Below are positions 1 through 1,041 of a DNA stretch of 64,000 bases, one piece after another. The stretch lies in contig NZ_LMGZ01000021.1 in NCBI RefSeq assembly GCF_001427605.1, positions 1 to 64,000 on the forward strand. The letters run 5' to 3'. The notes beneath the pieces are model-generated. The model had not been told where the DNA came from, did not search any database, and was given only the letters and a program-made list of their open reading frames with translations. Made by a program: the position numbers and the translations under genes. The DNA comes from Devosia sp. Root635. Its GTDB lineage: Bacteria > Pseudomonadota > Alphaproteobacteria > Rhizobiales > Devosiaceae. Within the stretch, counting starts at the first letter, position 1. Each line of letters opens with the position of its first letter.

Positions 1-98
1 GTGTTGGCGATGCGCTTGCAGATACCGCCGGCGGGTGCGTCAATGTCCAGCCAGCGTTTAGAAACGTCGATTCCTATCCAGGTCGGTGATAGCGTCAT
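1..98 (-). CDS. IS110-family transposase, N-terminal fragment
   Basis: Only the first 32 residues are in the window; the gene runs off the left edge. They start at an ATG at 98-96 and contain WIGIDVSKRWLDI, the opening strand of the RuvC-like DEDD domain of IS110 transposases, with the first catalytic aspartate at about residue 11. These enzymes cut and join DNA through a Holliday-junction-like mechanism and, in the IS110 subgroup, are guided by an RNA encoded in the leader next to the start codon. Whether the C-terminal Tnp20 domain with its serine is intact cannot be seen. The gene faces away from plsY. Confidence 0.8.
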   Translation of the reverse strand, partial: MTLSPTWIGIDVSKRWLDIDAPAGGICKRIAN

Positions 99-245
99 GA
101 GGCCTGTCCCTGTGATGCGAGGTCCATTGCAACTGGCCTCGTGCAACTGTTCAGGTGGTCAAGAGCGGGCGGGGACCCGTGCCGGCTCGCGGTCTCACAA
201 CCTGGGACCCAACGGTCTCCCGCCCGCGTCAATCATGACACAATC
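99..245 (-). ncRNA. Candidate IS110 bridge RNA region
   Basis: This is the noncoding leader directly upstream of the transposase start, where IS110-subgroup elements encode their bridge (seek) RNA. A perfect 9-bp stem joins 165-173 (GCGGGCGGG) to 219-227 (CCCGCCCGC), enclosing about 45 nt. Inside, GGGACCC occurs twice (172-178 and 204-210) and CGGTCTC occurs twice (near 190 and 213), as might be expected of a loop with paired guide segments. A second region at 125-150 carries a GCAACTG repeat. The stem is seen; the function is inferred from family and position, and the RNA ends are guesses. Confidence 0.4.
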
Positions 246-325
246 AAACAACACAGGGGCCCATCCTGAGGTCGCGCCCCAGCCGCAAGGTGGTTGGTTT
301 GAACCACCGGACTTGCCTCACCATC

Positions 326-362
326 TCGGGATGGATCCCGGCTCAAGGCCGGGATGACATCG
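326..362. repeat. Dispersed palindromic intergenic repeat (GGATCCCGGC/GCCGGGATGACA type)
   Basis: GGATCCCGGC, a short AT-containing centre and GCCGGGATGACATCG form a hairpin. A diverged copy lies at 54887-54916. It separates the IS110 end from plsY and is probably native intergenic sequence, not part of the IS. Confidence 0.6.
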
Positions 363-432
363 AGTTGGGGAAGCCCCCTTGTGGGAACCACCGCGCTGGG
401 GCTACTTTTCTGCACAATTTGAGAGGAAACCA

Positions 433-1041
433 ATGCCAACCGACCTGATGCCGCTGCTCTACGCCATCGTCCTCGGCTATCTCTGCGGCTCCGTCCCCTT
501 CGGCCTGCTGCTCACCCGCGCCGCCGGGCTTGGCGACATCCGCGATATCGGCTCGGGCAATATCGGGGCGACCAATGTGCTGCGCACCGGCAATCGCTGG
601 GTCGCCGGTGCCACGCTCGTCCTCGACGCCGCCAAGGCCGCCCTGCCCATTCTCGTCGCCCGCTACTGCTGGGGCGAAAACGCCGCCATGCTCGCCGCCA
701 TCGGCGCCTTGCTCGGACACTGCTTCCCGGTCTGGCTCAATTTCAAGGGCGGCAAGGGCGTCTCGGTGATGATCGGCTCGCTCCTCGCCCTTTCCTGGCC
801 GGTCGGCCTCATCTTCTGCGCCGTCTGGCTGGTCATCGCCTTCGCCCAGAAAATGAGTTCGCTCGCCGCGCTCACCGCCGCCGCCACCGCGCCGATCTTC
901 GCCTTTGTCGTGGTCAATGAATGGCTGGCCGGCGCCATTGCCGTCATGGCCATCGTCCTTTTCTTCCAGCACCGCGAAAACATCGCCCGGCTGATGGCCG
1001 GCACCGAGCCAAAAATCGGCTCGGAGAAAAAGGCCTCCTAG
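433..1041 (+). CDS. plsY: Glycerol-3-phosphate acyltransferase PlsY
   Basis: 202-residue multi-pass inner-membrane enzyme that transfers the acyl group of acyl-phosphate to glycerol-3-phosphate, the first acylation of phospholipid synthesis. All three family motifs are visible: GSVPFG at 19-24, GSGNIGATN at 40-48 and GHCFPVWLNFKGGKGV at 95-110. I chose the ATG at 433 (MPTDLMP) because GAGAGG sits just upstream and the transmembrane helix begins at once. An in-frame start at 379 would add a non-family hydrophilic leader. The stop is 3 nt before dprA, so the two are probably co-transcribed. In relatives pyrC often lies upstream; here an IS110 end does. Confidence 0.95.
   Translation: MPTDLMPLLYAIVLGYLCGSVPFGLLLTRAAGLGDIRDIGSGNIGATNVLRTGNRWVAGATLVLDAAKAALPILVARYCWGENAAMLAAIGALLGHCFPVWLNFKGGKGVSVMIGSLLALSWPVGLIFCAVWLVIAFAQKMSSLAALTAAATAPIFAFVVVNEWLAGAIAVMAIVLFFQHRENIARLMAGTEPKIGSEKKAS

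What the first reader, a model, noticed from the sequence alone, without database searches (positions are those of the whole stretch)
1..290. IS110 left end with a possible bridge RNA next to plsY
The minus strand opens an IS110 transposase (WIGIDVSKRWLDI). Its leader has a perfect 9-bp stem (165-173 with 219-227) enclosing a 45-nt internal region in which GGGACCC and CGGTCTC each occur twice. IS110-subgroup leaders encode bridge RNAs whose loops hold target and donor guides. Repeated short segments inside one loop are what split guides could look like. That this leader works as a guide RNA is inference.
Basis: partly seen in the sequence, partly recalled or inferred. Interest (0 to 1): 0.7.

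Follow-up and report, generated by a model that had tools for sequence, protein, structure and literature searches.

The report
RNA-guided IS110 element in genomic repeats
The window starts inside a jumping gene whose leader very probably makes a guide RNA that steers it into a repeated DNA motif of its host; this is a known kind of mobile element, with a few details that depart from the textbook example.

Summary
The window begins at a contig start inside an IS110-subgroup element. A full copy on another contig (L011) is 1,102 bp: 159-nt leader, 310-aa transposase, 10-nt right non-coding end. The leader carries a predicted bridge RNA. Its target loop holds UUGGGUCCC (left guide) and GAGCCGG (right guide), which fit the two halves of a REP-like repeat, ATGGG(T/C)C[CC]GGCTCAAGG. 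That repeat abuts 4 of 5 left ends (the fifth follows a probable assembly join) and 5 of 5 right ends. The donor loop matches both element ends. Eleven aligned leaders support the fold by two-sided changes. Across 29 element clusters, guides fit their own flanks better than in any of 20,000 re-pairings. Transcription and activity are inferred.

It is a new member of a known kind. Two details depart from the published IS621 description: a CC core where T is called almost invariant, and no room for the 5' stem loop. CC-core elements mostly carry an arginine (11 of 12) not seen in 28 CT-core ones; a lead.

The parts
1..98 (-). 5' end of the IS110 transposase gene (ATG at 98-96), cut by the contig start
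   Evidence: the full 310-aa copy in L011:1672-2601 has PF01548 + PF02371 and NF033542 above its cut-off
99..257 (-). Left end / leader of the element (159 nt from core to start codon), predicted bridge RNA gene
256..257 (-). Core dinucleotide CC at the left end; recurs at the right end (GTTG-CC-GGCTC)
   Evidence: Junctions compared with unoccupied repeats
232..237 (-). -10-like hexamer CATGAT; with TTG-CC-T of the joined right and left ends it resembles a promoter that exists only in the circular form
   Evidence: (no shuffle control): best spacer 17 nt in 8 of 8 CC clusters, 7-9 of 12 consensus bases; TG before the -10 in 6 of 8. One search found no promoter-like site in linear L011:1400-2628. 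Function inferred
219..227 (-). Target-loop stem, 5' strand (continues at 217-214 after a bulged A at 218)
165..173 (-). Target-loop stem, 3' strand (continues at 177-174)
   Evidence: 9 of 13 stem pairs show two-sided changes
204..212 (-). Left target guide UUGGGUCCC (includes core CC); same sense as target top strand ATGGGTCCC / ATGGGCCCC
191..202 (-). Inner hairpin of the target loop (pairs 202-200 with 193-191)
182..188 (-). Right target guide GAGCCGG, complementary to CCGGCTC on the right flank
181..181 (-). Predicted handshake base C (would pair with donor position 7, G)
   Evidence: By analogy with IS621 (PMC11208158 passages) and sequence; inference
143..150 (-). Left donor guide ACAGUUGC, same as right end ...ACAGTTG-C
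   Evidence: Sequence; ACAGTTG is invariant in 11 of 11 leaders
118..141 (-). Inner hairpin of the donor loop
109..114 (-). Right donor guide CACAGG, complementary to the left end CCTGTG
   Evidence: RNAalifold pairs these columns; in L022 (CT core) the guide base changes with the core
108..108 (-). Predicted handshake base G (would pair with target position 7, C)
   Evidence: By analogy with IS621 and sequence; inference
103..155 (-). Donor loop with closing stem CCTG (155-152) / CAGG (106-103)
   Evidence: of 4 pairs 3 never vary and 1 varies on one side, so little covariation support for this helix
258..264 (-). Left half of the target site (ATGGGCC before the core), remnant of a G-type REP arm
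258..374 (.). Host BIME-like repeat: interrupted G-type REP arm, spacer, intact A-type arm GGATCCCGGCTCAAGGCCGGGATGACA from 333

Best explanation
The element is an IS110-subgroup insertion sequence. After excision, its joined right and left ends form a promoter that transcribes the leader as a bridge RNA. The first loop (left guide UUGGGUCCC, right guide GAGCCGG) pairs with the bottom-left and top-right strands of a REP arm; the second loop pairs with the joined element ends; the recombinase exchanges strands at a CC core. Shown by sequence: the element, its ends, target and core, the guide-target and guide-donor matches, and the conserved RNA fold. Inferred from the IS621 precedent: the circular form, transcription, RNA binding and catalysis.
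For: Complete copy L011 with IS110 domains and PDB relatives ISCro4 (9t56) and IS621 (8wt6), E 9.3e-35 and 7.5e-34. Layout 159-nt leader / 10-nt right non-coding end. 4 of 5 left-end occurrences and 5 of 5 right-end occurrences in the genome abut REP halves fitting the guides. 29 clusters: summed own-flank guide score 424.5, best of 20,000 re-pairings 370.0. Among the 8 CC clusters, 4 of all 40,320 permutations (the true one included) reach the observed sum. Guides change with flanks between elements: GGGTCC (G000), GGGCCC (G116), GGATTC (G362), GTGCACC (G253), GAGCCTC (G029); right guides GAGCCGG (G000), GACCGG (G358), TTTGCCGG (G029) with majority flanks CCGGCTC, CCGGTC, CCGGCAAA. Fold.
Against: No transcript or activity data. 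Single-sequence fold energy is ordinary. No copy in this genome is assembled with both flanks. The inner left end of the C1 copy has no REP flank: it follows a partial left end; I left that flank out of the score and typed in the other four. Own flanks ranked first in only 15 of 29 clusters (ties counted against; some clusters share near-identical targets). Off-guide flanks exist, e.g. L147 with TTTGCCTCC against guide UGUGCACCC. The left guide's first base does not match the flank in G000 or G116. Element ends were set by hand from terminal motifs: 78 of 120 relative loci plus L011 were used, the rest dropped for missing, unclear or duplicate ends. Donor guides had no permutation test.
Confidence: 0.93

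Rival explanations
1. The leader is only a structured 5' untranslated region that limits transposase expression, and the protein alone recognises the palindromic REP.
For: A strong stem close to the start codon. For the REP-inserted ISPpu9, two small RNAs and the secondary structure of the mRNA 5' untranslated region regulate the transposase (PMC8450116, title and start of abstract in a listing).
Against: It does not explain why loop segments match target and donor and change with the flanks over 29 clusters, nor the two-sided stem changes. A regulatory role beside guiding is not excluded.
Confidence: 0.04
2. The guide matches are by-products of insertion: copies gain flank-like sequence by self-insertion or recombination inside their own leaders.
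For: L148 has a left flank reading as another copy's left end up to its left guide; the C1 copy has a partial second left end.
Against: Both guides, one sense and one antisense, sit at matching places of the leader in elements without any such duplication.
Confidence: 0.01
3. The element is of the IS1111 subgroup with its RNA at the right end.
For: The IS1111 element ISPa11 also targets REP sequences (passages of PMC11187229).
Against: Only 10 nt lie between the stop codon and the right-end core, against 159 nt on the left.
Confidence: 0.01

Closest known systems
IS621 of E. coli (IS110 subgroup, bridge RNA; PMC11208160 and PMC11208158, passages seen)
   Same: Recombinase homologous over query residues 7-308, with residues aligned to D11, E60, D102, D105 and S241 conserved (read by eye); RNA gene in the left end; left guide sense and right guide antisense; core included in both guides; REP target; promoter-like match across the right-left junction; handshake bases fit
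   Different: CC core instead of CT; no room for a 5' stem loop ahead of the target loop; different REP and guides
REP-targeting IS110 elements ISPpu9, ISPpu10, ISRm19 (PMC1525189, passages)
   Same: IS110-family elements inserted specifically in REP sequences (7/7, 7/7 and 4/4 in that paper's table); ISRm19 is from Sinorhizobium meliloti, to my recollection the same order as this host
   Different: Their sequences were not compared; guides, core and ends not tested here
ISEc21 and IS1111 seekRNA elements (PMC11187229, passages)
   Same: A non-coding region makes an RNA with two short segments matching opposite target strands; upstream of tnp in the IS110 type
   Different: IS1111 members carry it downstream of tnp

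Membership tests
IS110 family, IS110 subgroup | DEDD (RuvC-like) domain plus Transposase_20 domain | tested here: met
   PF01548 and PF02371 above gathering scores; NF033542 207.4 bits against cut-off 140
IS110 family, IS110 subgroup | Long left non-coding end, short right end | tested here: met
   159 nt against 10 nt
Bridge RNA (IS621 type) | Two stem loops with internal guide loops in the left-end RNA | tested here: met
   (11 leaders); the donor-loop closing stem hardly varies
Bridge RNA (IS621 type) | Left guide matches left target (pairs bottom strand), right guide pairs top strand of right target, both including the core | tested here: met
Bridge RNA (IS621 type) | Donor guides match right end and left end | tested here: met
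   ACAGUUGC / ACAGTTGC and CACAGG / CCTGTG; no permutation test made for donors
Bridge RNA (IS621 type) | 5' stem loop before the target loop (structurally conserved among IS110 orthologues per PMC11208158; the same passage says its deletion only slightly reduced recombination) | tested here: not met
   Left guide starts 45-49 nt from the core in 8 of 8 CC clusters, and the -10-like box occupies nt 21-26 of the window's leader. The RNA start is predicted, not measured. CT clusters L022, L027 and L032 are short too
Bridge RNA (IS621 type) | CT core, second base T almost invariant (PMC11208158) | tested here: not met
   CC on both sides; 8 of 29 clusters are CC
Bridge RNA (IS621 type) | RNA is transcribed, bound by the recombinase and directs recombination | not testable with these tools
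   Needs experiment

The most novel reading that the evidence does not exclude
The element belongs to a subgroup of bridge recombinases with a CC core and a compact bridge RNA of about 125 nt without a 5' stem loop. Core preference may have shifted with an arginine just after the E60 loop (R64 here, aligned with IS621 A70). It is R in 11 of 12 CC elements (the other, L166, has C) and in none of 28 CT rows. On the tree of 28 clusters the CC core needs two changes.
Probability: 0.5. Interest if true: 0.6.

Novelty: new member of a known kind. Interest (0 to 1): 0.4.

Why it matters
The relatives form a natural reprogramming series: elements with alignable leaders differ in guide and in target together. 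If confirmed, the CC-core group would widen the usable core sequences of bridge recombinases and point to a residue to test. For the host it is an ordinary REP-dwelling insertion sequence.

Tried and rejected
Rfam scan of window 1-1000 with a relaxed threshold: four sub-threshold hits (sX15, mir-668, C4, L25 leader), taken as chance. Single-sequence fold energy: uninformative. Promoter scan of linear L011:1400-2628: none found, but that scan asks for 9 of 12 consensus bases, more than the junction site has (8). A first leader alignment (A1) held a wrongly placed G358 row and was replaced by A2; no result rests on A1. RNAalifold's outer helix (columns 1-6 with 172-177) is read as left end against right donor guide, not as an RNA helix. 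A residue comparison gave 13 columns that nearly separate CC from CT elements; most probably follow descent, and only R64 was followed to further elements.

The partial second left end in the C1 copy was first considered a nested insertion. The junction reads GTTGTGAG-CCCCTGTG, which fits no guide-directed site; two N lie nearby (L011:1425 and 1670) and contig C19 ends at the same base, so an assembly join is likelier; not settled.

The CC/CT split is not a survey of cores: ends were sought with C[CT] motifs, and elements with other or unclear ends (e.g. L060, L090) were dropped.

Literature searches: IS110 + bridge RNA, IS110 + repetitive extragenic palindromic, IS110 + core dinucleotide, bridge recombinase, Devosia + IS110, IS621, seekRNA. 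I saw listings, and passages of PMC11208160, PMC11208158, PMC11187229 and PMC1525189; no paper was read whole and no supplement was read. I saw no CC-core bridge RNA described in them ('CC core' had 0 occurrences in PMC11208160), but that paper selected guides with CT cores, so other cores were probably in its data.

Full report
What is there. The window is G000:C21:1-64000 and base 1 is the contig start. The minus strand from 98 encodes the first residues of an IS110 transposase. A search of the window's own genome with window 1-440 gave 67 matches, among them a 99% identical leader on contig C1 and further left ends on C4 and C19. The C1 copy (L011) has a 310-residue transposase at 1672-2601, then TAA, ten bases and the right-end core ...ACAGTTG-CC. 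Counting one CC, the element is 1,102 bp (L011:1513-2614). Pattern CTACAGTTGCCGG occurs five times (C1:100, C1:409605, C11, C12, C22), all close to contig ends, so the assembler probably collapsed about four copies.

Family. Pfam and NCBIfam place the protein in IS110; its PDB relatives are ISCro4 and IS621. Five catalytic positions of IS621 (D11, E60, D102, D105, S241 as named in PMC11208158, passages) fall on D, E, D, D and S in the alignment, read by eye with a two-residue offset for the chain. The host family is probably Devosiaceae: L117 (G096, same family as the window's genome) shows the same leader and right end as L035, a record titled Devosia sp..

Target. Several fetched stretches of this genome carry two REP-like arms in inverted orientation. 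Two kinds recur: A-type GGATCCCGGCTCAAGG, 28 exact sites, and G-type GGGCCCCGGCTCAAGG, 12 exact sites; GGGTCCCGGCTCAAGG has none. Five left-end occurrences were found. Four are preceded by a REP half: C1 (outer), C4 and C19 read GGGTCCC, and C21, the window, reads GGGCCCC; none reads GGATCCC. The fifth, the inner left end of the C1 copy, follows a partial left end and has no REP flank. My arithmetic: G at that base in 4 of 4 occupied against 12 of 40 unoccupied exact arms gives p about 0.013 if copies are independent; C1 and C4 share their surrounding repeat, so they may not be (with three, about 0.037). All five right ends read CCGGCTCAAGG; in four the far arm is visible: CGATGACA twice, GGATGACA once, GGGTGACA once (the fifth, is cut). 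The exchanged bases are CC: donor GTTG-CC-TGTG, target GGRTC-CC-GGC or GGGCC-CC-GGC.

Guides. Read 5' to 3' on the minus strand, the target loop holds UUGGGUCCC (212-204), which equals the top strand of the left target at eight of nine positions for ATGGGTCCC sites, and at seven plus a wobble for the window's own flank ATGGGCCCC. GAGCCGG (188-182) is the exact complement of CCGGCTC. The donor loop holds ACAGUUGC (150-143), equal to the right end, and CACAGG (114-109), complementary to the left end. Orientation follows the IS621 rule in PMC11208160 (passages). The predicted handshake bases also fit (C at 181 with donor G; G at 108 with target C); this is inference.

Comparative test. I assembled 29 element clusters from 78 of 120 relative loci plus L011, setting ends by terminal motifs and copy comparison. 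Each leader was scored for its best left and right guide against every cluster's majority flanks, G-U at half weight. For G000 the four REP flanks were typed in, in place of the inner C1 flank. The sum for true pairings was 424.5; 20,000 re-pairings reached at most 370.0; own flanks ranked first in 15 of 29, ties counted against. Within the eight CC clusters 4 of 40,320 permutations, the true one included, did as well. Against: individual copies depart from the guide, for example L147 (left), L123 and L124 (left), L124, L125 and L129 (right).

Fold. Eleven leaders (the window's and ten relatives, two of them from one genome) were aligned (A2). RNAalifold predicted 30 pairs, 15 with two-sided changes. 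The structure I wrote from the G000 leader had 98.3% of 297 cells paired and 13 of 27 pairs with two-sided changes (shuffle means 89.0% and 4.0; 0 of 500 as high), and fell to 33.6-48.5% paired when slid by 1-3 columns; one measure, further pair types, was reached by 24 of 500 shuffles. The shuffles do not keep relatedness. Nine of the 13 target-stem pairs carry two-sided changes; the donor closing stem hardly varies and so says little.

Core and 5' end. Eight of 29 clusters have CC, the rest CT; because ends were sought with C[CT] motifs this is no survey of cores. On a 28-row tree the CC label needs two changes, though one row (Pros) is long and poorly placed. PMC11208158 calls the second core base T almost invariant in IS621 and related orthologues. 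In the CC clusters the left guide starts 45-49 nt from the core. A promoter-like match whose -35 spans the right-left junction, with a 17-nt spacer, lies just before the target stem in 8 of 8 (7-9 of 12 bases; TG before the -10 in 6 of 8); CT clusters score 3-8, and there was no shuffle control. If it is the start, no room is left for the 5' stem loop. Some CT elements (L022, L027, L032) are equally short, so this is not tied to the core. Residue 64 is arginine in 7 of 7 CC rows and 0 of 20 CT rows (Pros and L059 left out there). In elements looked at afterwards, L021, L064, L149 and L167 (CC) have R and L166 (CC) has C; L150, L152, L153, the G249 and G1138 groups, L155, L168 and L169 (CT, read by eye; L152 by its right end only) have no R; L157 was left out because its end is unclear. 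This is a lead, confounded in part by descent.

Verdict. The element is a new member of the bridge-RNA IS110 subgroup, targeted to the host's REP repeats, with a CC core and a compact RNA as its points of interest.

Noticed in passing
L011:1447-1510 (G000:C1): The C1 copy has a partial second left end (about 64 nt) in front of the full one; two N lie nearby and contig C19 ends at the same base, so probably an assembly join.
   Followed up: partly
L148 (G253:C21), left flank: A copy's left flank reads as another copy's left end up to its left guide (GTGTGCACCC), as if the element had inserted into its own guide sequence, which is followed by CCGG like a target. The right flank does not continue the other copy.
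   Followed up: partly
window 258-374 and other sites in G000 (67 matches, several per site): BIME-like repeats with two REP arms, often an A-type and a G-type, in inverted orientation about 100 nt apart.
   Followed up: partly
L116, L118-L126, L128-L130 (G116): Thirteen fetched copies (of 14 matches) of a 68-72% identical element in one single-contig genome; left flank GGGCCCC in 11 of 13; several have disrupted transposase frames. Described only.
   Followed up: partly
G005, G045 and G032 loci: CT-core relatives in the same genus sit in other palindromic or repeated flanks (e.g. CCTCCCCCT / CTCAGGGGGAGG).
   Followed up: no
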